Virus record (IMG/VR): IMGVR_UViG_3300044974_001280
Coordinates: 124,001 to 188,000 of that record
Source: a virus
Reading direction: 5' to 3' (one strand)
Length of the DNA: 64,000 nucleotides
Both the position numbers and the translations under genes were made by a program. The notes beneath the pieces were generated by a model. The model was not told the origin of the DNA. It saw only the letters and a list, made by a program, of their open reading frames with translations, and did no database searches. The stretch's first letter is position 1; each line of letters starts with the position of its first letter. Of this stretch, positions 17,865 to 57,965 are shown one piece after another.

Positions 17865-18497
17865 ATGGATTTAGTTAAGAATTTCTCAGATTTTTTAATA
17901 GAAAGAGAATTGCCGGATTCTCAAGGAAAAATTCTAGTTGTGATGGGACCTCCGGGATCAGGTAAAGGAACTTTTTCCGAAAAACTGGCAGATAGGCAAG
18001 GCTTCCACCACATTTCAACCGGAGAATTGCTCAGGAAATCAAAAAACCCGGAGATCAAGAAAAAAGTTGAACGGGGTGATTTCATCGACGATCAGACAGT
18101 TGTAAAGATGATCCGGAGGGAACTGAAGAAAATTGATCCTGATGATGGGATCATTATTGACGGATTCCCCCGGACCGTTAAACAAGCCTCTCTGTTAGAT
18201 TCTTTGCTCGGAAAAATGGGCTTGGGCCTGAGCCACACCATCTATCTGGATATAGACGAAGAAACGGCCAAAGGCAGAATTACTGCCAGGGCGGAAAGAG
18301 AAGACCGGAAGGACGACAAAGATCCAGAGGTGGTGGCTAAAAGATTCAGAGACTATGAAGAAAAAACTGCACCCCTGATTGATCTCTACACAAAAAACAG
18401 AAAACTGAAAAAATATAATGCCGCCAAAGGTAGCGAGAGCGTTTACAAGAAGATCGTGAAGGCCTTAGAACTAAACCGGACCCCTGATTCAGAATAA
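17865..18497 (+). CDS. adk: Adenylate kinase with capsid-targeting-like leader
   Basis: The first 18 residues (MDLVKNFSDFLIERELPD) are a leader of the packaging type (F-x-x-F-L-I-E). A complete adenylate kinase follows: VVMGPPGSGKGTFSEKLA (P-loop), HHISTGELLR (AMP site), DGFPRTVKQA (D-G-F-P-R), then an RITARAEREDRKDDK lid that is short and lacks zinc cysteines, as in short-lid kinases. It converts ATP plus AMP to two ADP. Total 210 aa. Unlike nrdAB it has its own late box 4 nt upstream, so it looks like a virion protein rather than an early metabolic enzyme. A non-AMP nucleotide specificity cannot be excluded. Confidence 0.9.
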   Translation: MDLVKNFSDFLIERELPDSQGKILVVMGPPGSGKGTFSEKLADRQGFHHISTGELLRKSKNPEIKKKVERGDFIDDQTVVKMIRRELKKIDPDDGIIIDGFPRTVKQASLLDSLLGKMGLGLSHTIYLDIDEETAKGRITARAEREDRKDDKDPEVVAKRFRDYEEKTAPLIDLYTKNRKLKKYNAAKGSESVYKKIVKALELNRTPDSE

Positions 18498-30849: not shown

Positions 30850-31920
30850 ATGAAATCATCTAAAGTTCTGAATTTTCAAGATTTTCTCGGTCTGTCAACG
30901 GACAGAATAACAGAGAATGAAAAAATTCAGGATATTTTAAAAGATGCCATTGGGGAAGTTGCCCCACTGATTCCCAAAACAGGGGGAGAAAGCGGTGGTC
31001 TAAAAGAACCAATTATCAAGTCAGGTAAAGATTTACAGAATATGTTTTGGTCTACCAGTATGGGCAAGAGATTTTTAGAAAAAACGGATGAAGATTATCG
31101 AAAGCAGATGTCCGAGAAAGGTCTCCTAGACAGCAAATATTTATCTGATGAAGGAACTGGATCAAGAAATGCACCTTCCGGCAATATCTCAAAGGAAAAA
31201 GAATTGCAAGATATGCTCGATAGAATGGGAATGGGAAAAAGTGGAGATATAGATTTCGGTAAGTTACCAGACGGAGGATCTTACGAATTTAGTGAGGCCA
31301 AAGAAATGGATTGGAGTGATCTCAGCCAACTATTGAAAAAAGAAGGAATCAAGTACCCGTCCGATAAATACACTCTTGTTGCTCTGAGAAACAACCTGGT
31401 GGTGAAGAAAAAAATGCCCAATCGTTTCACCGATGCACTTTTCTTACTAGGTCCCGACTCCAATAAAACAGTCCAATTTTATCCAGCCACCACCACACCT
31501 GGGCCAGCCTTTATGGTAAAAAGTTATCGGAATTTAATGGCTAGTAGGGGCAATGCTTCCGGCATTAACCCCAAGGGGCTAGCCATCATTCAACCGGGTG
31601 TTTATACCTATAAATTGGGTAAGCACAAAGGGAAAGAGGATGCATTAATCCAGGCAGAACCAGTCACGGTTCATAGATACACGCCAGTCGATTCTGAAAG
31701 TCAGGCAACATTTAAAACTTTTTCACCGGGCAATGAAGAAAAAGGTGAATTTGGAATCAACATTCATCAAGGAGCTGATATAGATACCGTCGATAACATT
31801 AGCAGTGGCTGTCTTGCCACCCAGTACAAAAAAGACATGAAAGAGATCATCAAGAAATTGAAAGATGCCGGCCAAGATCAGATCGAATTGGTTCTTTTAG
31901 ATCTAGATTCAATTAATTAA
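30850..31920 (+). CDS. L,D-transpeptidase-like protein with capsid-targeting-like leader
   Basis: A 356-aa protein. The leader is KVLNFQDFLGLSTDRITE-NE: F-x-x-F-L and I-T-E before N. The middle (residues 25-180) is charged and helical. The C-terminal domain (about 190-340) resembles YkuD-type L,D-transpeptidases: IIQPGVYTYKLGKHKG, then GINIHQGADIDTVDNISSGC with the H...S-x-G-C active-site pattern (His and Cys separated by 15 residues). Such enzymes cross-link peptidoglycan or attach proteins to it. The usual final R after the cysteine is replaced (S-G-C-L-A). It may act on the wall at DNA entry. Confidence 0.6.
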   Translation: MKSSKVLNFQDFLGLSTDRITENEKIQDILKDAIGEVAPLIPKTGGESGGLKEPIIKSGKDLQNMFWSTSMGKRFLEKTDEDYRKQMSEKGLLDSKYLSDEGTGSRNAPSGNISKEKELQDMLDRMGMGKSGDIDFGKLPDGGSYEFSEAKEMDWSDLSQLLKKEGIKYPSDKYTLVALRNNLVVKKKMPNRFTDALFLLGPDSNKTVQFYPATTTPGPAFMVKSYRNLMASRGNASGINPKGLAIIQPGVYTYKLGKHKGKEDALIQAEPVTVHRYTPVDSESQATFKTFSPGNEEKGEFGINIHQGADIDTVDNISSGCLATQYKKDMKEIIKKLKDAGQDQIELVLLDLDSIN

Positions 31921-37301: not shown

Positions 37302-38768
37302 ATGAATTCACTACCCGCCGTGTTAAATTTTTGCAACTTCTTGAACGAATCTAAAGAAGAAAAAGGAGTTGAACTCCTGATCCTCTCAGGCACGGTAAAA
37401 CCCAGTCCGACGTCCAAATCCTTCCTGGAGGAATGCCAAAAAAGGGGTATCCCTTGTTACGTTGTCAACATCAACAATGTGCAGCTTGAAAAAATCTATA
37501 ATGGACATCTACTCCGGGAGACCTCAGGGGACAAAAGAGAAATTTTCATAAATCCTGATGTGACCGCTATTATTCCTAGACGAGGGGTTATTTCCAATTC
37601 TCTGACCAAACAGATCATGAGAGAATTAGAAGCATCCCGTTATTTCTGTGTCAATTCTCTGGAATCTATCGAGGTGTGTGAGAGTAAATTCTTAACCTCA
37701 AAGGTGTTGGAAGAGAATGAACTTCCAGTTCCCAGATATGCCCTGGTGAACGGGGAAGAAAATCTGGATACTGCCTTGGAACAAATAGGTGGTCAGTTTC
37801 CTGTAGTAATGAAGTTGCTCTCGGGCACTCAGGGCATTGGGGTTTCAATTGTTGATTCTTACGCCTCTCTGAAATCTGTGTATCAAACGATTGCCAAATT
37901 GGATCCCGAAAAGGAAATTCTTATTCAGGAAAAAATTGACTCGAACTTTGATTTGAGAATTCAGGTCATCCTCAAAAGATTTGACCCTTTAATCACCAAA
38001 CCAAGCAATTGCATTATTCTTGGATCCATGAAAAGAGAAGCAGTAAAAAAGGATTTCAGAACCAATTACTCTCTAGGAGGTAAAGTTTCTGCCTATAATA
38101 TAGATGATAAAATTGCCGATTTAGCCTGTCGGGCTGCTAATTCTGTCGGTAGCCATTGGTGCGGGGTAGACATCATGATCGATAAAAAAACGAAAGAGCC
38201 GTATATTCTGGAGGTTAATTCCTCGCCTGGAACAGAAGGCATCTCTCAGGCCATAGGAAGACCCATTGTGGGGGACGTCATCGATTATGTCATCAATAAA
38301 AAGAATTGGATCTACTCTAGGATGGAGGTTGGTTATTTAGAGACGATTGAGATCCCAGAGATAGGAAAGCTTGTTGCCAAATTCGACACTGGAAATGGCT
38401 CCAGTGCCTCATCGATTCAGGCAGATGAAACGAAAGAAGTAGGAAATCAGCTGAAGTGGAAAATCGGGGGCAAAGAATTTACCAGCGACATTGTTGGTTA
38501 CACCGATACGGAAGTGGGTAGAGATAAAAGCAAGAGACCTATTATTCTGCTAGACGTCATGCTCAACGGGGTAAAGATCTCGGATGTAAAAGTTGCTCCC
38601 ACGGATAGGGTCCAAAAAAGCACTCCATTCCTGGCCAGCAGAGGCCTGATGAAAAAAATGGGGGTAATGGTTAATCCACACAAAGCCTTTGTCGTCACCG
38701 AGGAGATTAAAGGTTATAGACCTTTGAAAGCCAAAGGCAAACCCCATCTTGGCATTGAATTTTCTTAA
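37302..38768 (+). CDS. RimK-like ATP-grasp ligase fused to RimB-like aspartic protease, with leader
   Basis: A 488-aa protein. Residues 1-18 (SLPAVLNFCNFLNE-SK) form a leader with F-x-x-F and L-N-E before S. Residues about 20-330 are a RimK-type ATP-grasp: PRYALVNGEENLDTALEQIG, VVMKLLSGTQGIGVSIV, ILIQEKID, and GVDIMIDKKTKEPYILEVNS then SPGTEGI. Residues about 345-488 are a retropepsin-like domain: GKLVAKFDTGNGSSASSIQA carries the D-T-G catalytic motif, as in RimB/ATP-dependent zinc-protease-type proteins. In bacteria RimK adds glutamates to ribosomal protein S6 and RimB trims them. Both activities in one packaged protein is unusual; the target is unknown. Confidence 0.8.
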   Translation: MNSLPAVLNFCNFLNESKEEKGVELLILSGTVKPSPTSKSFLEECQKRGIPCYVVNINNVQLEKIYNGHLLRETSGDKREIFINPDVTAIIPRRGVISNSLTKQIMRELEASRYFCVNSLESIEVCESKFLTSKVLEENELPVPRYALVNGEENLDTALEQIGGQFPVVMKLLSGTQGIGVSIVDSYASLKSVYQTIAKLDPEKEILIQEKIDSNFDLRIQVILKRFDPLITKPSNCIILGSMKREAVKKDFRTNYSLGGKVSAYNIDDKIADLACRAANSVGSHWCGVDIMIDKKTKEPYILEVNSSPGTEGISQAIGRPIVGDVIDYVINKKNWIYSRMEVGYLETIEIPEIGKLVAKFDTGNGSSASSIQADETKEVGNQLKWKIGGKEFTSDIVGYTDTEVGRDKSKRPIILLDVMLNGVKISDVKVAPTDRVQKSTPFLASRGLMKKMGVMVNPHKAFVVTEEIKGYRPLKAKGKPHLGIEFS

Positions 38769-38986: not shown

Positions 38987-39481
38987 TTATTTCCTAGTTT
39001 TTTTAATAAAATCTTTGAAACTTAGGATTGGGGTTCTTTCATCCGATGAAGATTCTTCGTCCTCTTCATCTTCTTCGTCCTCTTCTTCGTCCTCTTCTTC
39101 GGAATCTTCATCTCCGAGAAAAGGTTCAGTTAGCATTTCCTCTTCTTCGTAATCTGTTTCATCTTCATCATCATCTTCATCATCTTCATCATCTTCATCA
39201 TCATCCTCGTCATCGACTTCGCTATATTCTATACTCTGGACCTCTTCTTCTTCGTCGCTCTCCTCTTCGTCCTCTTCCCCTTTGTCTTCTTCTCTTTCAT
39301 CCGGATCCTCTTCCTCATCTGATGAAATTTGGAAATCGATTGTACCCAGATCTTCTGGTTCTTCAGAAGGATCTTCTATTTCTTCGGGAGAAATTTCCAC
39401 TTCAGCTTCTTCTATTTCAAATTCCGAAGTTGAATCCTGAAGGTAAAAATCTTTGTCTTTTTCTGCTAAAGAAGTTTGCAT
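38987..39481 (-). CDS. Hyperacidic protein with C-terminal packaging-like motif
   Basis: A 164-aa protein in which residues about 20-145 are almost only D, E and S, with long runs of D/E. The last 15 residues flip to basic and aromatic: TPILSFKDFIKKTRK, the S-F-x-x-F motif seen in leaders of this window but here at the C-terminus. No L-x-E site follows it. Acidic proteins of this kind can be prohead core/scaffold components (T4 gp67 is small and acidic), DNA mimics, or counter-ion carriers in capsids. Its start faces a leader-bearing gene across a palindromic late box. Confidence 0.65.
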   Translation of the reverse strand: MQTSLAEKDKDFYLQDSTSEFEIEEAEVEISPEEIEDPSEEPEDLGTIDFQISSDEEEDPDEREEDKGEEDEEESDEEEEVQSIEYSEVDDEDDDEDDEDDEDDDEDETDYEEEEMLTEPFLGDEDSEEEDEEEDEEDEEDEESSSDERTPILSFKDFIKKTRK

Positions 39482-39516: not shown

Positions 39517-39843
39517 ATGTATAAGAAAAAAATTCTAGAATTCGACGATTTTGTTTCAAATCTGTCTCTCAGTGAAGTCCAACAGGAAGAAATCAAAGAT
39601 TTCGTTAAAAAATACGAAAAATACATGAATTTTCATGACACGGGAGATTTTGAATCTTCTTTAGATGAATTAGTTAAAGATGTGATGACCCACTTTAACT
39701 TTCCCTCTTCTAAAAAAGAAGACGTTCAGAATTTCATTCAGAGTCTTCAAACTCTGTCTGATGGTATGTCAGTTATTATGTCCCCGGGTCCTGAAATTAT
39801 CTACCGGACCAATCCCGATATGACCCAAACAATTGTTTACTAA
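39517..39843 (+). CDS. Unknown protein with capsid-targeting-like leader
   Basis: A 108-aa protein starting MYKKKILEFDDFVSNLSLSE-V: a basic start, F-x-x-F-V, then L-S-E. The ATG at 39517 is chosen over a TTG at 39487 because the late box lies between them. The rest is acidic and helical (VQQEEIKDFVKKYEKYMNFH) with a Y-E-K-Y segment that recalls the EEYEKC motif but lacks the cysteine. The function is unknown. It is followed after 10 nt by thioredoxin. Confidence 0.6.
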   Translation: MYKKKILEFDDFVSNLSLSEVQQEEIKDFVKKYEKYMNFHDTGDFESSLDELVKDVMTHFNFPSSKKEDVQNFIQSLQTLSDGMSVIMSPGPEIIYRTNPDMTQTIVY

Positions 39844-40163: not shown

Positions 40164-40694
40164 ATGAAAAATATTATCTCTTACGACAATTTTACTCCAG
40201 AATCTTCTGATCCTTTACAGGAGGGATGGAAAGATGCCGGCTATGGCTACAAAAGGTACCAACCCCCAGGCATGTTACAAACCATGAAAAGAAAAACAAA
40301 AAGCCTGTTTGGTATTGAATCAAGCAAGGATCGGGAAAGATTAGGACAAATTTACAAAGAAATTGAAAATCCTCCCTATCAAGGTTATATCTCCAACGTC
40401 AGAGACATCAGTGGAGAATATCCGGCTTTAATTTGCCATCTGGGACCTAGAAATCTGTCTGTTATGTGCGATCCACAAGACCCTTCCATCAGATGGGGAG
40501 GAAGTGAATTGGATTTGGCGGATATCGATGATGAATGCCAAAGACTTTATCGTTTCATCAAAAAGCACATGGACCTGACTGAAAATACACATTCTCCAAC
40601 GGACAACACCATCAAAGATCCTAAAAACATGTACTCTTCCTACCCAGGTGTAGGTGGGGTGAGTAACCGAACAGTCAACCGTTCTCTGATTTAA
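40164..40694 (+). CDS. Unknown protein with capsid-targeting-like leader
   Basis: A 176-aa protein. The N-terminus MKNIISYDNFTPESSDPLQE-GW has the Y-x-x-F pair and L-Q-E before G, the exact T4 protease consensus L-x-E/G. A basic segment (YKRYQPPGMLQTMKRKTKSL) and a domain with paired cysteines (ALICHLGPRNLSVMCDP) follow. The function is unknown. It follows thioredoxin after 13 nt and converges with a holin-like gene. Confidence 0.6.
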   Translation: MKNIISYDNFTPESSDPLQEGWKDAGYGYKRYQPPGMLQTMKRKTKSLFGIESSKDRERLGQIYKEIENPPYQGYISNVRDISGEYPALICHLGPRNLSVMCDPQDPSIRWGGSELDLADIDDECQRLYRFIKKHMDLTENTHSPTDNTIKDPKNMYSSYPGVGGVSNRTVNRSLI

Positions 40695-45858: not shown

Positions 45859-46839
45859 ATGAATTATCCATTTAAAAAAATTTTCATTATAAATTGTTTT
45901 CCTTCTAGTGACTACCATTTACAAATTCTGAAAGAATGTATTGTCAGACTCAAGGGGCTTGACTACAAACTGATGGTTGTTTCACATTTACCTCTGCCCC
46001 TTGATGTGCAGAAGGAAATAGACTATTTTATTTATGATTCAGAAAATCCACTCTTAGGATCCCATTCATTCAGTTGGTTTGCTAATTCTTTTATTAAGGC
46101 AACTCTGTGGAACATAGGTCACATGCTTGCTATCTGTAAAAATATGGACACTAGTATTTCTGCCGCCCACCGAATGGGCTATGAGTATTTCTATTTTTTG
46201 GAATGTGACAATTTAATTTCTGAAAAAGATCTTTCTACTTTTGATAATTTTCTGCAAGAAATGATTCATGCCGAAAAAAAAATGATCTTTCATAGATACC
46301 AATTTAACGAGGGTTACAATTATCACACTCTCTTGTTTGGAGGAAATGCTGAATATTTTGTGCAGAAAATCAAATTACCCACAAATTATGATGCCTATCA
46401 TGCCTTTAATATCACTGGTATTCTCGAAAGAGATTTTTATGAGCATTTGGGTGTAAATGAATCTGATTTTTTGATTAAGGAATGTTACGAAGATGGTGCT
46501 ATGGAAGGATTTAGAACTAGCGAGATGAATAGAATTTCCGCTATTGGGATAGTGTGTGAAGTCCTCCCATCTCAAACTGGCTACTATCTTTTTTTAATGA
46601 ACAACACCTCAAGAGAAATAATATATTACGTCGGAGAGAATCAAATTGTTCTTACACTTGGGGGTTATTGGTACTGCCCAGCCTCTGAAAAAATGGAAGT
46701 TCGAATCGTGGATGGCAAATATTCCTTAGAAAAAAGATTCGAATTGACCGAAGAGAACGAAAAGTTTTACAGTGCCAAAGGATTTTTAGAACTGTATGAG
46801 TTTGCAGATTTAAACGGCGGATATGGTTCTATCTATTAA
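45859..46839 (+). CDS. Glycosyltransferase-like protein, family A paralogue 1
   Basis: A 326-aa protein with a GT-A-like N-terminal region: KKIFIINCFPSSDYHLQILK, LKGLDYKLMVVSHL and, in MGYEYFYFLECDNLI, an E-x-D-N metal-site candidate. A C-terminal beta-rich domain follows (VLTLGGYWYCPASEKMEVRI). Two further genes of the cluster (51922 and 56052) share the order of motifs at low identity, so they form a family. Enzymes of this kind usually extend surface or virion glycans. Donor and acceptor are unknown. Confidence 0.55.
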   Translation: MNYPFKKIFIINCFPSSDYHLQILKECIVRLKGLDYKLMVVSHLPLPLDVQKEIDYFIYDSENPLLGSHSFSWFANSFIKATLWNIGHMLAICKNMDTSISAAHRMGYEYFYFLECDNLISEKDLSTFDNFLQEMIHAEKKMIFHRYQFNEGYNYHTLLFGGNAEYFVQKIKLPTNYDAYHAFNITGILERDFYEHLGVNESDFLIKECYEDGAMEGFRTSEMNRISAIGIVCEVLPSQTGYYLFLMNNTSREIIYYVGENQIVLTLGGYWYCPASEKMEVRIVDGKYSLEKRFELTEENEKFYSAKGFLELYEFADLNGGYGSIY

Positions 46840-46853
46840 TTTAATATCTCTTC

Positions 46854-47060
46854 TTACAGGCCATTCAATCTGGAGATCTCCTGTTTTAGCTGCGAAACCA
46901 CCAAAGTGTGATGCTCTTCTAATTTTTCCAGCTCTTTATTTAGATCTTCTACATGAGCTTTTAACCGACCGAGAATTTCACTCTTTTTCTCAGGGTCTTG
47001 GTTCAGCTCCAGATCTAGAATTAAATTCTTGATCCGATTGGTCCACTTGTTAACTTCCAT
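46854..47060 (-). CDS. Small coiled-coil protein
   Basis: A 68-aa minus-strand protein that is one long amphipathic helix: IKNLILDLELNQDPEKKSEI, then LKAHVEDLNKELEKLEEHHT. No family is recognised. It is the only minus-strand gene in the glycan cluster and converges with the first glycosyltransferase gene, with 14 nt between stops. Confidence 0.5.
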   Translation of the reverse strand: MEVNKWTNRIKNLILDLELNQDPEKKSEILGRLKAHVEDLNKELEKLEEHHTLVVSQLKQEISRLNGL

Positions 47061-47148
47061 TGTTTTTTTTTACAAATTTAAGAAATAATTCGAAATCATT
47101 TCTTTCTTTTTCATAAAAGGTCCATATTTAATTTGACTGACAAATCTC

Positions 47149-47535
47149 TTGGAACCACCTATTATATATCATGTACCCTCCTGCGATGAGTGCAACATCC
47201 CTAAAGGATGGGGTCATGAGGTTGTCTTCGAAAATAACGAACTGTATTGTGGAAAACTTCTATGTTTTAAGGGAGGAGCCAAATTTTCAATGCACTATCA
47301 TTTGATCAAAGATGAAACTTGGTACGTAAAGGAAGGCACTTTTATTTATCGGTATATAGACACCCGCAACGCAGAAGTGGTTGAAAAAAATTTAATAGAA
47401 GGTGATTCGGTCAGACAAATGCCCGGCCAACCACATCAACTGGAAGCAATAACGGATGGGATAATCTTCGAGGTTTCCACCCAACACTTTGACGAGGATT
47501 CTTATCGTGTTTGGAAAGGTGATTCACAAAAATAG
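47149..47535 (+). CDS. Cupin, phosphomannose-isomerase-type sugar cupin
   Basis: A 128-aa single cupin. KGWGHEVVFENNELYCGKLL and KFSMHYHLIKDETWYVKEGT carry the first metal-binding motif (H-x-H...E), and GQPHQLEAITDGIIFEVSTQ the second histidine. It resembles the C-terminal domain of type II mannose-6-phosphate isomerase/GDP-mannose enzymes and sugar-nucleotide cupins. It would isomerise or epimerise a sugar for the glycosyltransferases around it. The TTG start at 47149 is the only candidate before the conserved domain. Confidence 0.75.
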   Translation: MEPPIIYHVPSCDECNIPKGWGHEVVFENNELYCGKLLCFKGGAKFSMHYHLIKDETWYVKEGTFIYRYIDTRNAEVVEKNLIEGDSVRQMPGQPHQLEAITDGIIFEVSTQHFDEDSYRVWKGDSQK

Positions 47536-47552
47536 AAATTGAGTAGAGAAAA

Positions 47553-48338
47553 ATGAGCTCCGTTACCGTCATAATTCCAAATTACAACTTCTCTGAATTT
47601 CTTGATACGACTCTTTTTTCCGTTTTTTCGCAGATCACCAATTTCGACGTGCAAGTATTAGTGGGGGATGATTCTTCTCAAGATCAGAGCGCTGGTATTT
47701 TAACACGGTTCAAAAAATTTTACGGGCAGGACAAATTCGACTTTTTTATCAACACAGAAAATAAGGGAGAAGTAGAAACAGTTAAAAGATTACTTTCTAA
47801 AGCTAAAGGAAATTATATAGCCTATCTTGATGGTGATGACTATTGGATAGATCCTTATAAATTACAGAAACAATTTGATTTTCTTGAGAGTAATCCAGAA
47901 TTTTCCGCGTCTTCTACCGGTTATTTAACTTTAGAAGGAGAGTATGGATTTTGTCCACATCCAGAAGGAGATTTATTTTTTGGAGTTCCCGAAGAATTTA
48001 TGGATAAAAATTTCACCTCCCCTGAATTTATTTCTACCGGCAGGAACTGTGTATATGCATCCTCCCGTTTTTTTAGAAATTATGAGGATCTTTTTCAGCC
48101 TTACTTTTTCGAATTTCCGTATTCAGATTGGCCCATGAATTATGAATTAAGCTTAAGGGGTAAGATTAACTACGATCATTACCCTAGCTACATTTATAGG
48201 AAACATTCGAATTCTTTAACTCATCCTAAAGAAATAGAAAAAGTGGATGAAACAAGTGAAAAAGAATGGCTTGATCAAAAGTCCCTGATTTTTACCAGGA
48301 GAAAAGAAGAATTTCAGAAAAATCAGAATAAACAATAG
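47553..48338 (+). CDS. Family 2 glycosyltransferase, paralogue 1
   Basis: A 261-aa GT2 enzyme: SVTVIIPNYNFSEFLDTTLF, LVGDDSSQDQSAGIL, and YIAYLDGDDYWIDPYKLQKQ with the D-x-D-D metal site. It transfers a sugar from a nucleotide donor with inversion. The gene at 53040 is its paralogue (same YWIDPYKL segment and the same C-terminal SSRFFRN region). It forms a run with the cupin. No membrane segment is seen, so it acts in the cytoplasm. Confidence 0.85.
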   Translation: MSSVTVIIPNYNFSEFLDTTLFSVFSQITNFDVQVLVGDDSSQDQSAGILTRFKKFYGQDKFDFFINTENKGEVETVKRLLSKAKGNYIAYLDGDDYWIDPYKLQKQFDFLESNPEFSASSTGYLTLEGEYGFCPHPEGDLFFGVPEEFMDKNFTSPEFISTGRNCVYASSRFFRNYEDLFQPYFFEFPYSDWPMNYELSLRGKINYDHYPSYIYRKHSNSLTHPKEIEKVDETSEKEWLDQKSLIFTRRKEEFQKNQNKQ

Positions 48339-48343
48339 AATCA

Positions 48344-48592
48344 ATGGAGACGAAAAATCACATTATTAATTCTCTCAAAAAAAGGCATCAGCTTTACACT
48401 GGATTACACGATGAGCAAATTAAGAAAGATCACCTCTGGGTGCTGAACCATCCCTTAAAAGGCTCGGTTAAAAAAGAATGGACTGATTTTGGGGTAAATT
48501 TAATTATGGCTGAAATGGGCTTGGATCAGAGATCCGCCGAGATTGAGATGTCTTTCTTGGAGCAAGAGTACGAATCTTTAGCCTCTAGATAG
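48344..48592 (+). CDS. Unknown small protein
   Basis: An 82-aa helical protein starting METKNHIINSLKKRHQLYTG. It follows the glycosyltransferase by 5 nt. Basic at the start, acidic at the end (AEIEMSFLEQEYESLASR). No family is recognised. Confidence 0.45.
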   Translation: METKNHIINSLKKRHQLYTGLHDEQIKKDHLWVLNHPLKGSVKKEWTDFGVNLIMAEMGLDQRSAEIEMSFLEQEYESLASR

Positions 48593-48611
48593 GTTCACGA
48601 CACCCAGATTG

Positions 48612-48619
48612 GATATATA
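48612..48619 (+). promoter_or_regulatory. Putative late promoter box GATATATA
   Basis: TTGGATATATAAAGG lies 16 nt before the ATG at 48636 of the secreted nuclease. Confidence 0.6.
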
Positions 48620-48635
48620 AAGGAAAAAATATCCA

Positions 48636-49223
48636 ATGCTATCAAGAATTTTACTTTTTGTCCTTTTTTTTCCTTTTTGTACATATTCACAAAGAGCATC
48701 TGTAGCGGTTAATGCGGGGGAATACTCTCTCGTTTACTCTGAAATATATCAGCAACCTCTAGAATTATCATACTCGGTCAGATGTACTGCGGCAAAGGAG
48801 AGCAGACAAGGATTGGATTTTTACCGGGTTGATTCCATCATTACCTCTGATCATGCGGATTACGAAAAGAATATCTGGGACAAAGGGCACCTAGCCCCGG
48901 CGGCTACTTTCAGTTGTTCTAAGGAGTCACTAGTAAGAACTTTCTCCTACCTCAACTGTGCTCTCCAACACCAAGATTTAAATCGGGGGGTTTGGAGAAT
49001 TTTAGAGGCCAAAGAGAGACAATTGGTAGCAGAATTTCATCAGGTCGACGTTCTCATTAAACTAGATTTTTCAGGGTCTCCTGAAAAATTAAGTACGGGA
49101 GCAACAGTTCCAACTGGTTTTTGGAAAATCCTAACCATCGACAAGAAAGAAAAAATAACTTATTATTTTCCAAATCGTAAGCCGGCCTTTACAGATCCTA
49201 AAAAATTTCAAATAGCAAATTAA
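48636..49223 (+). CDS. Secreted DNA/RNA non-specific endonuclease (NUC1-type)
   Basis: A 195-aa protein with a signal peptide (MLSRILLFVLFFPFCTYSQ, likely cut after S or Q). The mature part has WDKGHLAPAATF, matching the D-R-G-H active site of beta-beta-alpha nucleases with the catalytic His (the R is K here), and YLNCALQHQDLNRGVWRILE with the metal-binding Asn. It would degrade nucleic acid in the periplasm or outside the cell. A late box drives it. Possible roles are degrading free DNA at lysis or blocking incoming competitor DNA. Confidence 0.8.
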   Translation: MLSRILLFVLFFPFCTYSQRASVAVNAGEYSLVYSEIYQQPLELSYSVRCTAAKESRQGLDFYRVDSIITSDHADYEKNIWDKGHLAPAATFSCSKESLVRTFSYLNCALQHQDLNRGVWRILEAKERQLVAEFHQVDVLIKLDFSGSPEKLSTGATVPTGFWKILTIDKKEKITYYFPNRKPAFTDPKKFQIAN

Positions 49224-49249
49224 AAAATTTGAAACCTTGTTGGTGATTC

Positions 49250-49257
49250 AATATATA
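49250..49257 (+). promoter_or_regulatory. Possible late promoter box AATATATA
   Basis: ATTCAATATATAAAG lies 31 nt before the ATG at 49289. First base A rather than G. Confidence 0.45.
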
Positions 49258-49288
49258 AAGAAAGTTAAAACAAAAAACAAAAAAAACA

Positions 49289-49450
49289 ATGACAAAATCC
49301 CTGCTTACGCTCGCTCTCATTTCCATCCTAAGCTCCTGCGGTCCTGTAGTAGAAACTACAACTGATGAACCGGCAGTAGTTGAAGAAACCACTCCAGTTG
49401 ACACTACAACAGAAGCTACCGCCCCTGTTGATACAGTTTCAGCTCAATAA
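49289..49450 (+). CDS. Small lipoprotein
   Basis: A 53-aa protein. MTKSLLTLALISILSSCGP is a lipoprotein signal peptide with the lipobox L-S-S-C; acylation at Cys17 would anchor it in the envelope. The mature part is a low-complexity T/E/V/P/A chain (ETTTDEPAVVEETTPVDTTT). A terminator follows immediately. Phage lipoproteins of this size often act as o-spanins in lysis or in superinfection exclusion; the choice is open here. Confidence 0.75.
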   Translation: MTKSLLTLALISILSSCGPVVETTTDEPAVVEETTPVDTTTEATAPVDTVSAQ

Positions 49451-49464
49451 GATTTCTTCTCTTC

Positions 49465-49488
49465 AACCCAGCTTCGGCTGGGTTTTTT
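49465..49488 (+). terminator. Rho-independent terminator
   Basis: AACCCAGC and GCTGGGTT form an 8-bp stem with a TTCG loop, followed by T residues. It ends the lipoprotein transcript. Confidence 0.9.
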
Positions 49489-49513
49489 GTGATTAATTTA
49501 CAAATTTGAACTT

Positions 49514-50146
49514 ATGCATAGATCAGAAGTGATCAATCAGATTATCAGTACCAAAAAATTTAGCACCTACTTGGAGATAGGAGTAAGATGGCCTGAGGAT
49601 TGTTACGATTTAATTCAATGCGAAGAGAAATCTGGGGTCGATCCAGGTCTAGAAAATCCTGAAAATCCGGTCAAGTATCCGTTTACCTCTGATGAATTTT
49701 TTTCCAGGCTAGAAAATAATCTGTTGGATTTACCTCCTGATTATGAGTGGGATCTTATTTTTATCGACGGATTACACCTTTCTTACCAGGTAGAAAAAGA
49801 CATCTTAAATTCTTTGAATCACTTGACAGAAGAGGGAGTTATAGTTCTTCATGATTGTGATCCTTTTATGTATGAAGTAAATTACATTCGGGTCATCGAA
49901 GATTATCTTGGAGTAGCATGGAATGGAACAGTTTGGAAAACTATCTATAAGTTAAAGGCAACCAGGCCAGATCTGAATATTTGTACTGTTAATACCGACG
50001 AAGGTGTTGGACTGATCAAAAGGGAAAGCCAAGAGCTCGTTCCTTTCGATAACCCATATTTTGAGTATAAAATTTTCCAGCAAAATAGAACCAGAGATTT
50101 GAATTTAATTTCCCCTGAAAAAATATCTTCCTGGATTTTAGATTGA
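49514..50146 (+). CDS. Class I SAM methyltransferase-like protein
   Basis: A 210-aa protein. TYLEIGVRWPEDCYDLIQCE has the E-x-G SAM loop, WDLIFIDGLHLSYQVEKDIL the D-G-x-H motif, and EGVIVLHDCDPF the following strand, as in Methyltransf_24-type enzymes. A glycan or small-molecule O-methyltransferase is likely, given the cluster. The loop G-x-G is incomplete (E-I-G-V-R), so activity is not certain. It has no late box. Confidence 0.65.
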   Translation: MHRSEVINQIISTKKFSTYLEIGVRWPEDCYDLIQCEEKSGVDPGLENPENPVKYPFTSDEFFSRLENNLLDLPPDYEWDLIFIDGLHLSYQVEKDILNSLNHLTEEGVIVLHDCDPFMYEVNYIRVIEDYLGVAWNGTVWKTIYKLKATRPDLNICTVNTDEGVGLIKRESQELVPFDNPYFEYKIFQQNRTRDLNLISPEKISSWILD

Positions 50147-50206
50147 AACTTAAAATCCATCGAAAACTAATTCAGATTAGGCCGTATAATTTGAAAATTC
50201 ATCCCA

Positions 50207-50983
50207 TTGAAAACATTTCAAAAGCCCTCACAAGCCATCAAGTGGGCTAAGGAAAAATTGATCGATCACGGATATGTCGTACAGACCGAGAGATGGCAGG
50301 GTATACCTTCCCCTGACGACATGTGGGAAACCTTAAATACTTCTTTCTCTATGTTTGTCCCCCACACACTCGAAGAACTACGTGATGAGGTCAGACCTAA
50401 TCTTCCCTGGGCGGACGATCATTTTGAAGAAAGAATCGGGGGCCAGCCGCTGAATCCACCTCCTTCTAACGAATGGTGGCCTTTCAACCAAAAGAAGAAT
50501 TCCCAATTCAAAACAGAGGAGAAATTTTCTCACACTTATCCAGAAAGACTCTGGCCTAAATTTGCATCAGAAGAACCCAATTCGACCATGTTTGGCATTA
50601 GGTACAACTACGGTGACTTTGGTGATGTGATTGATTTGTTGGCAAGAGAACCTTTCACTAGACAGGCTTTTCTGCCCCTGTGGTTCCCGGAAGACACTGG
50701 ATCTGTCCACGGGGAACGAGTTCCTTGTACAATCGGCTATCATTTTATGAGAAGAGCGGATTATCTACACATCGTGTATTACATCAGGTCCTGTGACTAT
50801 CTCCGCCACTTTAGAGACGATATCTATATGGCTTGTCGGAAAGTTTTTTGGGTTCTAGAAAAATTGAGGGAAAGAAATCCCGAATCCTGGGGCGAGGTTA
50901 AACCTGGATTTTTTACCATGCACATCACTTCTTTGCATTGTTTCAATAAGGAGAAAGAAGTTCTAAGACAAAATAATAAATAA
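50207..50983 (+). CDS. Thymidylate synthase superfamily protein
   Basis: A 258-aa protein. TRQAFLPLWFPEDTGS and GERVPCTIGYHFMRRADYLH carry the R...P-L-W-F-P and V-P-C-T (catalytic cysteine) region of thymidylate synthase/dCMP hydroxymethylase enzymes, and IRSCDYLRHFRDDIYMA the S-x-D-x-x-x-x-F-x-x-D contact region. It is divergent from standard ThyA and could be a pyrimidine methylase or hydroxymethylase that makes a modified base, as in T4 gp42. The TTG start at 50207 gives the sequence MKTFQKPSQAIKWAKEKL; an alternative start further in is possible. Confidence 0.7.
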   Translation: MKTFQKPSQAIKWAKEKLIDHGYVVQTERWQGIPSPDDMWETLNTSFSMFVPHTLEELRDEVRPNLPWADDHFEERIGGQPLNPPPSNEWWPFNQKKNSQFKTEEKFSHTYPERLWPKFASEEPNSTMFGIRYNYGDFGDVIDLLAREPFTRQAFLPLWFPEDTGSVHGERVPCTIGYHFMRRADYLHIVYYIRSCDYLRHFRDDIYMACRKVFWVLEKLRERNPESWGEVKPGFFTMHITSLHCFNKEKEVLRQNNK

Positions 50984-50990
50984 AAAAATT

Positions 50991-51920
50991 ATGATCTCTC
51001 TAAATCACATTTTACCGGATAGAAACGGGATAGACTTTACCAGTCATTTTGACGAGGAAAGGGAAATTGTAATTAAGTTTATAGATTCTCACACAAGATT
51101 GTGTTATTGGGGTGACATAATTAATGTTTTTCCCAAATGTTCATACTGGGTAGCATATAGCGGTAGAATCACAAAATTTATCACTTTTGTAGTAGAGGAT
51201 TTGCAAACTGGAGAAATCCTACTCGAAGTTTGTGATTACTCAGATACTTTTAGGCATGATATAAGAAATTTGGACCCAAAGAACAGGTTGAAAAATATAG
51301 GAAGTAATCTTTCAAAAAAAGACTTAGTAACAGGGCTTGTACTTTGGGAGATTTTTTTAAGTGGGGAATACAACCACGAACATTGTAAAGTGGAACCTGG
51401 AGATGTTGTTGTTGATATTGGGGCAAACATCGGTTTCTTTTCCTTTTTTTCGATTACAAAAGGAGCTGCACAAGTTCACTCGTTTGAACCAGACCCCAAG
51501 CTATCAAGTTTTATTCAAACAAACTTCGGTGATTTGCCAATTCATGTCCACAATTTAGCTGTGTGGTCGGAAAAAAAGGATTTGAAACTAAATATTCATG
51601 AGTCAAGTGTTTTGAATTCAGTTTCTGTTTCGTTCGATCACACCGATGAAAGTGTTTTTTGTCAAGGAGTTGTCCTGGAAGAATGGGCAAAAGAAAATGA
51701 GGTAAAAATAGATTTTTTAAAAATAGACTGCGAGGGAGGTGAATGGGAAATTTTTCCAAACATGAGCTCTGAATTTTTAAAGTCTATACCAAAGATAGTT
51801 TTGGAATATCATATTCATCCTCCGGATCAATTATTGCTTATCTTTTCAGAAAATGGATTTCAAACACACCACACTGGAAATATGATCTGGGCTTGGCAGA
51901 ATAAAAAGATCTTGTCTTAG
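50991..51920 (+). CDS. FkbM-family methyltransferase
   Basis: A 309-aa protein. VEPGDVVVDIGANIGFFSFF is the SAM-binding motif I (D-x-G-A-N-x-G), then VHSFEPDPKLSSFIQTNF, and IDFLKIDCEGGEWEIFPNM, the L-K-I-D-x-E-G signature of FkbM enzymes. These methylate hydroxyls of glycans or small molecules. The N-terminal 130 residues are an extra beta-rich domain. The region is visibly richer in A and T than the replication genes. Confidence 0.85.
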   Translation: MISLNHILPDRNGIDFTSHFDEEREIVIKFIDSHTRLCYWGDIINVFPKCSYWVAYSGRITKFITFVVEDLQTGEILLEVCDYSDTFRHDIRNLDPKNRLKNIGSNLSKKDLVTGLVLWEIFLSGEYNHEHCKVEPGDVVVDIGANIGFFSFFSITKGAAQVHSFEPDPKLSSFIQTNFGDLPIHVHNLAVWSEKKDLKLNIHESSVLNSVSVSFDHTDESVFCQGVVLEEWAKENEVKIDFLKIDCEGGEWEIFPNMSSEFLKSIPKIVLEYHIHPPDQLLLIFSENGFQTHHTGNMIWAWQNKKILS

Positions 51921-51921
51921 C

Positions 51922-53043
51922 ATGAATTCTGATAATTTAATAGGAGAAAAAATATCAGATAAAAAGTTCTGTGTCATCATAGATGCATATCCCCAAACCA
52001 CGGAGGAACAAGAAATTCTTCTGGCCAATCTAAAAATTTTTCAACAAAATGAGATAGACGTTCTTTTAACTAGCCACCATCCATGTACTCCCGAGATTAT
52101 TGAAAACACTACTTATTTTATTTTTGAAAGGAAAAACAATTATCATTTCCTTGATTCAGACATTCTAAATTACAATCTAGAGGGAATACAAAATCCAGTT
52201 TACCTGAAATACATTCAAATAGGAAATGAAATGTTTAGAGACCATTTGGTTGTTACCGGTTGGTCGGTTTCCATTGTCTCCCAATTTGTTAATTCGATTA
52301 AATTTTTGTGGTCAAAGGGATATGAATTTGCCTTTTATTTTGTTGGAGATTTCAAATGTCCGGATAATATTCAACAAAAATTCTCTGAAATTTTTTCGAA
52401 TTTAGGGGAGCACAAAAATTACTTTATAAAAAATAATCCAAATTTTAGTAGCTGGTATTGCCCACACCTTTTTGGGTTTACTTTGGACGAAAGTTTGATT
52501 CAAAAAATTCCAAATCTCGATTTTTCGGATAATTCCAATTTTCAAAAGATTTTTCCCAATTGTGGTCTTGAAGATGTGATGCTAAAACTTTTTGGCGGGG
52601 ATAATAATCTAGTTGATGAACATTCCGAGATGGATAAATTTTTCGGATTCGGAAATTGGAATACAGTAAGTTCGATCATAAAACCTGGGCCAAGCGCTTT
52701 ACATTTCACCACAACTTCTTCACTATTCTGGAAGGAAGATCTATCGGATTGTTATTTACTTTTAAATGTTGAACCAGGTTGCCCTTGTAATGAAGTCAGC
52801 TTCTCCATTAAGATTATTACTGAAAATTCAGAAGAAATTTTCCATCGCGAAATAATTCTAGGAAAGGGAGGGTGGTACAAAGAAAAATTGAATGATTTGT
52901 TTGTAGATGGGGACTCTGTAGTTTTCACAAAAAAATTACATAATATAGAAGATGAAACATGTCAATTCACAGATTCTATAAAAATTAAAAGAGAAAACTT
53001 GTCTAAATATGCTTTGGTAAAAAATTACTATAAAATCGAATGA
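51922..53043 (+). CDS. Glycosyltransferase-like protein, family A paralogue 2
   Basis: A 373-aa paralogue of the proteins at 45859 and 56052. It starts DNLIGEKISDKKFCVIIDAY, then TEEQEILLANLKIFQQNEID, and has SKGYEFAFYFVGDFKCPDNI in the place of the metal-site strand; the D-N/D-F acid is altered, so catalysis needs testing. A beta-rich C-terminal domain follows. The ATG overlaps no gene, and the next gene overlaps its stop by 4 nt. AT-rich codon use. Confidence 0.5.
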   Translation: MNSDNLIGEKISDKKFCVIIDAYPQTTEEQEILLANLKIFQQNEIDVLLTSHHPCTPEIIENTTYFIFERKNNYHFLDSDILNYNLEGIQNPVYLKYIQIGNEMFRDHLVVTGWSVSIVSQFVNSIKFLWSKGYEFAFYFVGDFKCPDNIQQKFSEIFSNLGEHKNYFIKNNPNFSSWYCPHLFGFTLDESLIQKIPNLDFSDNSNFQKIFPNCGLEDVMLKLFGGDNNLVDEHSEMDKFFGFGNWNTVSSIIKPGPSALHFTTTSSLFWKEDLSDCYLLLNVEPGCPCNEVSFSIKIITENSEEIFHREIILGKGGWYKEKLNDLFVDGDSVVFTKKLHNIEDETCQFTDSIKIKRENLSKYALVKNYYKIE

Positions 53044-53810
53044 AAAGAAAAGAAATAAGTGTTATAATGCCGGTCTACAATTATGCTTATTTTTTAGATC
53101 GTGCTTTTTTTTCCGTTTACGTGCAAAAAATCGACTGCAATATTCATTTTATAGCCTGCGATGACTGTTCTACAGATCAAAGTCTGGCTATTTTACACAG
53201 ATTAAAAAATTTTGAAAACGAAAATTTTAAAATTTCGATATTTTCCAATAAAGAAAACAAAGGATTTATAGAAACCGTTATTTTTCTTCTCAAAAATTGT
53301 TCAACTTCTTATGTTGCTTATATAGACCCAGATGATTATTGGATAGATCCATATAAACTAAAAAAACAATTTGATTTTTTAGAAAATAATCCTGATTTTT
53401 CTCTCGTTAGCACTGGATATTTGATTAGTGAAGGAAGAAAATTGGTTCCCTCGGCGGATGGGAGCTTTTGGATTGCTGCTATGACAGAGTATAACTCCGT
53501 TTTACATCCAATTAGTGACGGAGAAATTGACAAAAAACTTTTACATCATAGTAACTTGTGCTACTCATCATCAAGATTTTTTAGAAATTTCACTGACATT
53601 GATTTAAGTTATGTTAAAAATAAGCATTTCATAGATTGGGCTACCAATTTTGAATTATCTCTTCGCGGTAGAATAGGATATCTTGATTATCCATCATTTG
53701 TTTATGAAAAAAAAGAAGATTCAATGTCATCTAAAGCTCAAACTGAAATAACAGAAAAAGATTTAGATGAAATTAAATCGATTTTCAATCAAAAATTTCA
53801 TAATTTTTAA
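53040..53810 (+). CDS. Family 2 glycosyltransferase, paralogue 2
   Basis: A 256-aa GT2 enzyme: EISVIMPVYNYAYFLDRAFF, ACDDCSTDQSLAIL, and YVAYIDPDDYWIDPYKLKKQ with the metal-binding aspartates. Close in plan to the gene at 47553, which suggests duplication of a glycosyltransferase pair. The ATG overlaps the previous stop (AATGA), so the two are translationally coupled. Confidence 0.85.
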   Translation: MKRKEISVIMPVYNYAYFLDRAFFSVYVQKIDCNIHFIACDDCSTDQSLAILHRLKNFENENFKISIFSNKENKGFIETVIFLLKNCSTSYVAYIDPDDYWIDPYKLKKQFDFLENNPDFSLVSTGYLISEGRKLVPSADGSFWIAAMTEYNSVLHPISDGEIDKKLLHHSNLCYSSSRFFRNFTDIDLSYVKNKHFIDWATNFELSLRGRIGYLDYPSFVYEKKEDSMSSKAQTEITEKDLDEIKSIFNQKFHNF

Positions 53811-53821
53811 ATTTTTTAAGA

Positions 53822-54982
53822 ATGAAAAATATTCAATTATTCAAACCTAAGTTCAGAACATCAGAAATCTGGGAACATATGCAAGAGTGTATGGAAATAG
53901 GATGGACAGGTTTAGGTTTTAAAACTCAGCAGATTGAAGAAGAATGGAAAAAATACACCGGATTTAAGCATGCGCATTTTCTAAATTCGAACACCTCTGG
54001 TTTGCATCTTGCCTTAAAAATTTTAAAAGACGCCAATAAATGGAAAGAAGGAGACGAGATTATCACGTCCCCCTTAACTTTTGTGTCTTCAAATCACGCA
54101 ATAATGTACGAAAGACTGAGACCAATCTTTGCAGACGTAGATGAATTTCTATGTCTGGATCCAAAATCAGTAGAATCAAAAATCACCAAAAAAACCAAAG
54201 CTGTTTTATTTGTGGGAATTGGGGGTAATGCCGGGAGGTTCGATGAAATAGTAAATTTTTGCCAACGCAAAGGCCTTAAAATTATTTTAGATGCCGCACA
54301 TATGGCTGGAACCTGGATAAAAAACAAAACAGAGGTTGGTGTTGGTTACTCGAAAGATCATGTTGGTTTAGATGCTGATGTTTCTATTTTTAGTTTTCAG
54401 GCGGTCAAAAATCTTCCGACCGCAGATTCGGGAATGATCTGTTTCAAGAATGAAGATTATGACGTATTAGCCAGAAAATTATCTTGGCTTGGAATTTCTA
54501 AAGACACTTACCAAAGATCACACGACAAAGGAAGTTATAAATGGGAATATGATCTCGTTGATGTTGGTTTCAAATATCATGGTAATTCTATGATGGCTTC
54601 GATGGCTTTAGTTGGTTTGAAATATCTTGAAGAGGATAACACCAGAAGAAGAGAAATCTGCCAAATGTATGAAAAGTCATTTCAATCTGCAGGCATCCAG
54701 TCAGTTAAAGTTTCTCCGTACACAGAACTTTCTTCTAGGCATTTGTATCAAATTGTTGTGGAAGAAAGAAACAAAACTATGGAATTTTTAAATATTCGTG
54801 GGATATATCCAGGAGTTCATTATCGTGATAATACCCATTATGATATGTACAAATCACAATTTGGGTTGAATCCGAATTCATTGAACCTGAGCGAGAAAAT
54901 TATTAGTTTACCTTTACATTTATTTTTAACCGATGATGATATTGAATTTGTGATTCAAAACGTTATCGAATCACAAAAATAA
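53822..54982 (+). CDS. DegT/DnrJ/EryC1-type sugar aminotransferase
   Basis: A 386-aa PLP enzyme. LNSNTSGLHLALKILK (phosphate loop), GDEIITSPLTFVSSNHAIMY, LKIILDAAHMAGTW (aspartate that contacts PLP), and VSIFSFQAVKNLPTADSGMI with the Schiff-base lysine in V-K-N. It aminates a keto sugar-nucleotide to an amino sugar. A GNAT acetyltransferase follows after 5 nt, a common pair that makes N-acetylated amino sugars. Confidence 0.88.
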   Translation: MKNIQLFKPKFRTSEIWEHMQECMEIGWTGLGFKTQQIEEEWKKYTGFKHAHFLNSNTSGLHLALKILKDANKWKEGDEIITSPLTFVSSNHAIMYERLRPIFADVDEFLCLDPKSVESKITKKTKAVLFVGIGGNAGRFDEIVNFCQRKGLKIILDAAHMAGTWIKNKTEVGVGYSKDHVGLDADVSIFSFQAVKNLPTADSGMICFKNEDYDVLARKLSWLGISKDTYQRSHDKGSYKWEYDLVDVGFKYHGNSMMASMALVGLKYLEEDNTRRREICQMYEKSFQSAGIQSVKVSPYTELSSRHLYQIVVEERNKTMEFLNIRGIYPGVHYRDNTHYDMYKSQFGLNPNSLNLSEKIISLPLHLFLTDDDIEFVIQNVIESQK

Positions 54983-54987
54983 CATTT

Positions 54988-55392
54988 ATGACCATTCGCG
55001 AATTTCAGAAGGGAGATGAAGCTGGATTACTGGAAATCTTGAAGGAGACCTGGTACATCACAGAAATACAAGAAAACGTTTTATCTGAATGGATGACAAA
55101 TAATTACAATTTTGTTGCGGTTGAAGAACAAGAAATCATAGGAACAATTACACTCCATCTCCAAAGAAAATTAATCCGAAATGGCGGGTTAGCAGGATTC
55201 ATTGAAGATGTGGCGGTGAAAGAAAAATTTAGAGGTAATAAAATTGGTTTTTTATTGGTTCAAAAAGCTTTGGAAAAAGCCAGGGATCTTGGATGTTATA
55301 AGGTTATTCTATCCTGTTTCGATGAGAGAATTAATTTCTATGAAAGATGTGGATTTTTCAGGGAGTGCAATACTATGAGAGTGGATCTTTAA
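54988..55392 (+). CDS. GNAT-family acetyltransferase
   Basis: A 134-aa single GNAT domain: MTIREFQKGDEAGLLEILKE, FIEDVAVKEKFRGNKIGFLL with the R/Q-x-x-G-x-G/A-type acetyl-CoA loop (R-G-N-K-I-G), and CYKVILSCFDERINFYERCG near the end. It is placed right after the sugar aminotransferase, so N-acetylation of an amino sugar is likely. Other acceptors cannot be excluded. Confidence 0.85.
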   Translation: MTIREFQKGDEAGLLEILKETWYITEIQENVLSEWMTNNYNFVAVEEQEIIGTITLHLQRKLIRNGGLAGFIEDVAVKEKFRGNKIGFLLVQKALEKARDLGCYKVILSCFDERINFYERCGFFRECNTMRVDL

Positions 55393-55402
55393 AATAAAAA
55401 AA

Positions 55403-56044
55403 ATGAACAATTCATACAACTTAAATTTAGATGGTATCATGGATGGACATCTAAAAACTTTATATAGAGGAATTATAACTGAAAAATCCCCATTTGATTA
55501 CGTAATGTATCAAATGATAATTAATGAAATAAGACCCGATTTGATAATAGAAATAGGGACTAATTATGGAGGATCGTGTCTGTATTTGGGTGATATTTTA
55601 AATAATATAGGTAAAGGTATGGTTCATACTGTGGATATTCAGGATGAAACTTTTTTATCAAATTCCGAAGAAAAGAGGGGTTTGATTAATCGACATCCAA
55701 GAATTCAGAGATTCTTGGGAGGTTATCAAGAATACAACTTGGATTATGCATCCTCATTTAAAAAAATTATGTTGATTGAAGATGGGTCACACAACTATAA
55801 CGATGTTTTGTCTGTGATGAATAAATTCAAAGATTTAATCAGCGAAGATTCCTATATGATCGTTGAAGACGGAACTGTGAATTGGATGGGCATCGAAAAA
55901 AACTATGACGGAGGTCCTCTTAGAGCGATAGAAGAATTTTTACCACAAAATCCACAATTCGAAATAGATAGAAAATGGTGTGATTTTTATGGTTACAATG
56001 TCACTTTTAATCCAAATGGATATTTAAAAAAAATTAATTTTTAA
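55403..56044 (+). CDS. Cephalosporin hydroxylase/CmcI-like SAM enzyme
   Basis: A 213-aa protein. RPDLIIEIGTNYGGSCLYLG is the E-x-G-T-x-x-G-G-S SAM site of CmcI/rhamnosyl O-methyltransferase-like proteins, IMLIEDGSHNYNDVLSVMNK has the D-G-S-H metal site, and SYMIVEDGTVNWMG follows. Such proteins O-methylate sugars. It lies in the AT-rich part of the glycan cluster. Confidence 0.8.
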   Translation: MNNSYNLNLDGIMDGHLKTLYRGIITEKSPFDYVMYQMIINEIRPDLIIEIGTNYGGSCLYLGDILNNIGKGMVHTVDIQDETFLSNSEEKRGLINRHPRIQRFLGGYQEYNLDYASSFKKIMLIEDGSHNYNDVLSVMNKFKDLISEDSYMIVEDGTVNWMGIEKNYDGGPLRAIEEFLPQNPQFEIDRKWCDFYGYNVTFNPNGYLKKINF

Positions 56045-56051
56045 AAGAATT

Positions 56052-57964: not shown

Positions 57965-57965
57965 C

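What the first reader, a model, noticed from the sequence alone, without database searches (positions are those of the whole stretch)
37302..38768. RimK-type ligase and RimB-type protease fused in one leader-bearing protein
Seen: ATP-grasp motifs followed by a D-T-G retropepsin-like domain, preceded by a leader ending L-N-E before S. Known: RimK adds glutamates to ribosomal protein S6 and RimB removes them. Inferred: an injected enzyme that edits the tails of host ribosomes or another host protein at the start of infection.
Basis: partly seen in the sequence, partly recalled or inferred. Interest (0 to 1): 0.7.

Follow-up and report, generated by a model that had tools for sequence, protein, structure and literature searches.

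The report
Phage-packaged glutamate ligase–protease fusion
A large phage carries one enzyme that fuses a RimK-type ligase (which adds glutamates to proteins) to a RimB-type protease (which removes them), behind a signal resembling the one phage T4 uses to pack proteins into its head, so the phage may deliver a ready-made write-and-erase enzyme into the cell it infects.

Summary
Window 37302-38768 (+) is an intact 488-aa ORF: a leader (aa 1-16, ending FLNE|S), a RimK-type ATP-grasp ligase (aa ~24-337) and a retropepsin-type domain with DTG at 362-364. The ligase passes Pfam RimK and NCBIfam rimK_fam and models onto RimK crystal structures (Z 30). The C-terminal domain models onto RloA/RloA2/Lpg0085 (Z 12.5-13). 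Inspected ATP-grasp positions and DTG are invariant in 16 phage homologues, down to ~30% identity. All 36 IMG/VR loci keep the leader. The leader has the T4 capsid-targeting spacing (F..F-[LI]-x-E). This genome also has an S77 prohead protease and a gp23-like capsid protein with an SLNE|S motif, and similar leaders are 5-11 times enriched at N-termini. The distant YerA41 homologue was listed as particle-associated by LC-MS/MS (PMC7354516). Packaging and delivery are therefore well supported, by inference. The target (ribosomal protein S6 or another) is untested. Bacterial RimB-RimK hybrids are known with the protease first; here the ligase is first, as also in haloarchaea. A conserved convergent gene beside it encodes an acidic protein with a leader-like C-terminus, a possible partner or substrate. 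Verdict: new variant of a known kind.

The parts
37302..38768 (+). RimK-RimB type fusion ('RimKB'), 488 aa
37302..37349 (+). leader aa 1-16, MNSLPAVLNFCNFLNE; predicted capsid-targeting sequence, cleavage after E16
   Evidence: T4-type spacing F..F-[LI]-x-E (for T4); same leader in 36/36 loci; low-confidence, unfolded in the model (pLDDT under 50 for aa 1-20)
37371..38312 (+). RimK-type ATP-grasp ligase domain, aa 24-337
   Evidence: RimK 7qys Z 30.1 over 289 residues; LysX 3vpd Z 30.2
38325..38699 (+). RimB/RloA-type retropepsin domain, aa 342-466
38385..38393 (+). DTG active-site motif, aa 362-364
   Evidence: invariant in 16 phage homologues
38796..38978 (+). 60-aa gene directly downstream, conserved beside RimKB in 13 of 19 other representative loci; looks ribbon-helix-helix-like by eye
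   Evidence: no Pfam or PHROG hit
38987..39481 (-). convergent gene for an acidic protein (54% D+E), C-terminus PILSFKDFIKKTRK resembling the leader
   Evidence: acidic minus-strand ORF with C-terminal R[VI][LM].[FY].[DE][FY]-like motif at the same place in 28 of 36 loci
39517..39843 (+). conserved gene with leader-like N-terminus MYKKKILEFDDFVSN; not clearly a head protein
   Evidence: conserved in 19 of 19 other representative loci; motif
40164..40694 (+). 176-aa gene with leader-like N-terminus MKNIISYDNFTPE|S
   Evidence: found in 4 other representative loci

Best explanation
It is a head-packaged, bifunctional RimK/RimB-type enzyme of a large myovirus with T4-type head genes. The N-terminal 16 residues dock the precursor in the prohead core and are cut off after LNE by the phage's gp21-type (S77) protease during head maturation; the mature enzyme (from S17) leaves the head with the DNA. 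In the new host its ATP-grasp domain ligates glutamate (or a similar amino acid) to the C-terminus of a protein, and its retropepsin domain, active only as a dimer, trims those tails, so that one polypeptide sets the tail length. The most likely target is ribosomal protein S6, whose tail length changes which mRNAs are translated. Shown here: sequence, domains, folds, conserved catalytic residues, leader conservation. Shown by others for a distant homologue: association with purified particles. Inferred: cleavage, delivery, activity, glutamate as substrate. Guess by analogy: S6 as target.
For: RimK and retropepsin assignment by sequence and fold; catalytic positions invariant across four phage groups. 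Leader: in T4 IPIII residues 4 and 7 direct targeting and residues 8 and 10 processing, and gp21 cuts after L/I-X-E (PMC9026906); here F10, F13, L14, E16 have the same spacing. Leader invariant in 36/36 loci while the linker after it varies. Same genome has a PF03420 prohead protease and a gp23-like capsid protein carrying SLNE|SAG. A leader regex fixed beforehand was 11-fold enriched at N-termini of the relative G002; a broader LxE form gave Fisher p 1.4e-9. RimK homologues in Pelagibacter phage Mosig (PFKNYLEE|A) and Methylophilales phage Melnitz (KFSQFITE|E) have the same spacing although the enzymes are only about 30% identical. YerA41 homologue is marked particle-associated, mid-expressed (PMC7354516). 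Bacterial RimB cuts poly-Glu from S6 and a RimBK hybrid is an active protease (PMC11957791).
Against: No experiment on this protein. The YerA41 particle list holds 63 proteins, including many replication enzymes, so co-purification is possible, and YerA41's own N-terminus does not fit the T4 leader. Strict leader enrichment in the window's own genome is not significant (4 N-terminal against 18 interior, p 0.13). The ligase fails the S6-ligase equivalog cutoff. Cyanophage RimKs have no leader, so a phage RimK need not be packaged.
Confidence: 0.45

Rival explanations
1. The substrate is a phage protein, above all the acidic protein encoded convergently next door (38987-39481). Both carry a related targeting motif, meet in the prohead or in the new host, and RimKB adds or trims its acidic tail.
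For: Acidic minus-strand gene at the same place in 28 of 36 loci, D+E 28-54%, with conserved C-terminal [RK][VI][LM].[FY].[DE][FY] like the RimKB leader core. RimB and RloA enzymes act on glutamate-rich chains.
Against: Published RimB needs about six contiguous Glu and ignores Asp, whereas this protein mixes Asp and Glu. Eight loci gave no acidic ORF by my criterion. The shared motif is short and was noticed after the fact; at a C-terminus it could instead be, for example, a sliding-clamp binding peptide.
Confidence: 0.15
2. The enzyme is packaged and delivered, but ligates another amino acid or modifies another host target (a defence protein, a translation factor, a peptide), as LysX/ArgX/MptN-type RimK relatives do.
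For: Fold scores for LysX and RimK are tied (Z 30.2 and 30.1); MptN and LysX models also hit strongly; only the broad rimK_fam cutoff is passed.
Against: The partner retropepsin is of the poly-Glu-cutting RimB/RloA class, which fits glutamate.
Confidence: 0.25
3. It is made and used inside the infected cell in mid-infection, is not packaged, and the N-terminal motif is a docking peptide for another phage protein.
For: YerA41 homologue is mid-expressed; gene neighbours include a DNA polymerase part rather than head genes; the leader core lacks an LxE site in several leader-like proteins.
Against: LNE[AS] is invariant or nearly so in RimKB; prohead protease and SLNE|S site in the capsid protein; particle association in YerA41.
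Confidence: 0.12
4. One or both domains are catalytically dead and serve as a scaffold or inhibitor.
For: The residue after DTG is N, not the A seen in the haloarchaeal and Persicobacter homologues.
Against: All inspected catalytic positions are invariant at 30% overall identity.
Confidence: 0.03

Closest known systems
RimBK hybrid of Desulfotalea psychrophila DP2392 (PMC11957791)
   Same: one chain with RimB-type protease and RimK-type ligase; the protease trims poly-Glu from S6
   Different: protease first, ligase second; cellular; no leader. Persicobacter plasmid protein has the same B-K order
RimK and RimB of Pseudomonas (7qyr, 7qys; PMC11957791, PMC7343187)
   Same: ligase fold and motifs; RimB-type DTG protease
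   Different: separate proteins, about 25% identity, cellular
RloA/RloA2 periplasmic retropepsins (9g58, 9g59; PMC12239564) and Lpg0085 (2pma)
   Same: fold of the C-domain (Z 12.5-13.1)
   Different: single-domain, secreted (RloA); 24-31% identity
Haloarchaeal RimK/LysX-family proteins, e.g. WP_227778482.1
   Same: same ligase-then-protease order; two of three have DTG
   Different: 24-25% identity, no leader, separate branch of the tree; function unknown
T4 internal proteins IPI-IPIII and Alt, with capsid targeting sequence
   Same: leader spacing and L/I-X-E cleavage site
   Different: unrelated cargo domains; delivery shown for T4, not here
YerA41_066 / GN1 ORF105, Mosig_00005, Melnitz RimK
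   Same: YerA41, GN1 and Mosig are full RimK-RimB fusions; Mosig and Melnitz have the leader
   Different: about 30% identity; YerA41 lacks a T4-like leader; Melnitz has no protease domain

Membership tests
RimK family alpha-L-glutamate ligases (TIGR00768/PF08443) | score above curated cutoff | tested here: met
   146.8 against 143.4 bits; 114.3 against 21 bits
RimK family alpha-L-glutamate ligases (TIGR00768/PF08443) | ATP-grasp catalytic and metal-binding residues | tested here: met
   inspected columns invariant
30S ribosomal protein S6--L-glutamate ligase (NF007764) | score above equivalog cutoff | tested here: not met
   85.6 against 331 bits
30S ribosomal protein S6--L-glutamate ligase (NF007764) | ligates Glu to S6 | not testable with these tools
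   needs enzyme assay
RimB/RloA retropepsin-like proteases (PF05618, family A2 type) | D-T-G in a retropepsin fold | tested here: met
RimB/RloA retropepsin-like proteases (PF05618, family A2 type) | score above PF05618 or RloA curated cutoff | tested here: not met
   21.1 against 27; 34.8 against 250; the family profile finds PDB members at E 9e-10
RimB/RloA retropepsin-like proteases (PF05618, family A2 type) | dimerisation and poly-Glu cleavage | not testable with these tools
   needs biochemistry
RimBK hybrid (PMC11957791) | RimB domain N-terminal to RimK | tested here: not met
   order reversed here
T4-type capsid-targeted proteins | aromatic residues three apart, then L/I-X-E, at the N-terminus | tested here: met
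   FCNFLNE; all 36 loci
T4-type capsid-targeted proteins | gp21-type protease and gp23-type capsid protein in the same genome | tested here: met
T4-type capsid-targeted proteins | cleaved and present in the head | not testable with these tools
   only a distant homologue was listed as particle-associated

The most novel reading that the evidence does not exclude
A self-contained phage polyglutamylation cassette: a head-packaged writer-eraser together with a dedicated acidic partner or substrate that carries the same targeting motif at its C-terminus, both delivered into the cell.
Probability: 0.12. Interest if true: 0.85.

Novelty: new variant of a known kind. Interest (0 to 1): 0.6.

Why it matters
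No phage enzyme that adds and removes amino-acid tails on host proteins was found in the papers searched here (R2K ATP-grasp ligases have been predicted to do so in jumbo phages, PMC7824862), and the role of S6 glutamylation is still poorly understood. A packaged, leader-bearing fusion that is conserved in large phages from many samples makes both directly testable: one assay of the recombinant enzyme and one virion proteome would decide most of it. It also gives a sequence signal for finding other head-packaged cargo in these phages.

Tried and rejected
A search for the fusion in bacterial and archaeal genomes found one relative, a contig carrying DNA polymerase and clamp-loader-like genes beside the fusion and so probably a T4-like phage contig; the scan used only two peptide patterns, so absence elsewhere is weak evidence. 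Plasmids gave haloarchaeal K-B fusions and ordinary RimKs. The idea that all phage RimKs are packaged was dropped: cyanophage S-RIM8 and S-RIM12 RimKs have neither leader nor protease. LNE anywhere in the proteome is not enriched (29 against 27 expected); only N-terminal occurrence is (13 against 6.7 in the first 70 aa). A strict T4 regex is not significant in the window's own genome. The full-length model's library hits cover only the ligase, so the C-domain was folded and searched alone. The 2009 amidoligase survey (10.1039/b917682a) is not held, so an earlier mention of phage RimK-protease fusions cannot be excluded.

Full report
What is there. Window 37302-38768 on the + strand is an uninterrupted 488-codon ORF in a 230,445-base virus record. 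It has three parts: a short leader, a RimK-type ATP-grasp ligase, and a C-terminal domain with D-T-G. The ligase part matches Pfam RimK (E 7e-33) and passes NCBIfam rimK_fam (146.8 against 143.4 bits), but is far below the equivalog for the S6-glutamate ligase (85.6 against 331). AlphaFold2 on 23 window-family sequences gives pLDDT 75, and aa 23-337 align to RimK crystal structures at Z about 30; LysX scores equally, so the fold does not tell the amino acid or the target.

The C-terminal domain is weak by single-sequence search (PF05618 21.1 against 27 bits; RloA2 E 1e-8), but a profile of phage C-domains finds RloA2, Lpg0085 and RloA in the PDB at E 9e-10 to 1e-7, and the domain folded alone matches those three at Z 12.5-13.1 and retroviral proteases at about 9. 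So it is a retropepsin of the RimB/RloA class. The DTG and all inspected ATP-grasp positions are invariant in 16 homologues, including Yersinia phage YerA41 and Pelagibacter phage Mosig at 32-33% identity.

Distribution. 36 IMG/VR loci encode it, on contigs up to 430 kb, some nearly identical to the window. In GenBank phages, full fusions occur in YerA41, GN1 and Mosig; Melnitz and cyanophages S-RIM8 and S-RIM12 have the ligase only. Among plasmids, haloarchaea have the same ligase-protease order at 24-25% identity, and Persicobacter has protease-ligase. A maximum-likelihood tree of the ligase domain puts the phage fusions and Melnitz in one group (support 92/92, not starred) apart from haloarchaea and bacterial RimK.

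The leader. All 36 loci share [VIL][LVMF]x[FY]xx[FY][LI]NE[AS]-type N-termini, and the ~10 residues after it are variable. In phage T4 the ten-residue capsid targeting sequence of IPIII uses residues 4 and 7 for targeting and 8 and 10 for processing, and gp21 cuts after L/I-X-E (PMC9026906); T4 internal proteins are delivered with the DNA (PMC3012670). F10, F13, L14 and E16 here have that spacing. The genome has an S77 prohead protease (PF03420, E 5.5e-10), within a 676-aa frame that continues into YSEYLAEN-type repeats, and a gp23-like capsid protein (E 1.6e-39) with SLNE|SAG about 40 residues from its start. Other proteins have such leaders. A core motif was five-fold enriched near starts in this genome (9 in 6182 positions against 18 in 61151; the regex was chosen after looking). 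The same regex, unchanged, on relative G002 (348 kb) gave 23 N-terminal hits, 11-fold over interior; a broader form with LxE gave p 1.4e-9, though some hits are from the same protein. Leader-bearing proteins include peptidoglycan-binding/endolysin, transglycosylase, GDPD and, in the window, adenylate kinase. Mosig and Melnitz RimKs have the same spacing.

Particle association. YerA41 gene g112, 'ribosomal protein modification protein', is marked as LC-MS/MS particle-associated and mid-expressed (PMC7354516). By gene order after the two ribonucleotide reductase genes it is YerA41_066, the homologue found here, annotated 'structural protein'. That list holds 63 proteins with many replication enzymes, so contamination is possible; and this homologue's own N-terminus lacks the T4-like leader.

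How it probably works. RimK adds Glu to S6 and RimB trims poly-Glu and stimulates RimK; a bacterial RimBK hybrid is an active protease (PMC11957791); S6 tail length changes translation of a set of mRNAs (PMC7343187). By analogy, a delivered fusion would set tail length on S6 or a similar target at once after entry. Delivery is inferred, activity is inferred, the target is a guess. The upstream regions lack Shine-Dalgarno motifs (5 of 68 genes) and are A-rich, which fits a Bacteroidota host (inference); bacterial RimBK is common in Flavobacteriales according to PMC11957791.

A possible partner. Directly downstream, on the other strand, lies a gene for a strongly acidic protein; 28 of 36 loci have an acidic minus-strand ORF there, whose C-terminus ends in R[VI][LM].[FY].[DE][FY]-like sequence, similar to the RimKB leader core but without LxE. 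It may be a packaging partner, a substrate, or unrelated; the motif is short and could serve another binding purpose.

Verdict. The structure is certain, packaging is likely (about 0.8), glutamate chemistry is likely (about 0.7), S6 as target is open (about 0.4 to 0.5).

Noticed in passing
window 38987-39481 (-) and L001-L036 about 1.6-2.2 kb after the RimKB start: Convergent gene for an acidic protein, D+E 28-54%, with conserved leader-like C-terminus, in 28 of 36 loci.
   Followed up: partly
G000:C1:51463-53493: The S77 prohead protease lies in one 676-aa frame with about 15 YSEYLAEN-type repeats, as if protease and scaffold were one polyprotein.
   Followed up: partly
window 17865-18497 (+): Adenylate kinase (PF00406 E 1.9e-36) with a leader-like N-terminus MDLVKNFSDFLIE.
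   Followed up: partly
window 59914-60966 (+): Glutamine synthetase (PF00120, PF03951), a possible link to glutamate supply.
   Followed up: no
window 5650-6993, 4800-5333, 7264-7833, 1455-2387 (+); 12434-12757 (-); 30850-31920 (+): Further proteins with leader-like N-termini, several ending LNE or LSE; 5650-6993 has a peptidoglycan-binding domain.
   Followed up: partly
window 8205-8633 (+): Protein with leader-like motif at its C-terminus (NLVDYRDYIKSKKKKK).
   Followed up: no
whole window: Few Shine-Dalgarno motifs (5 of 68 genes) and A-rich upstream regions, pointing to a Bacteroidota host.
   Followed up: partly
L034: RimKB frame is broken after aa 351 although the similarity runs on, perhaps a frameshift or assembly error.
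   Followed up: no
window 45859-58700 (+): Run of glycosyltransferase-, methyltransferase- and aminotransferase-like genes, a sugar-modification cluster by eye.
   Followed up: no
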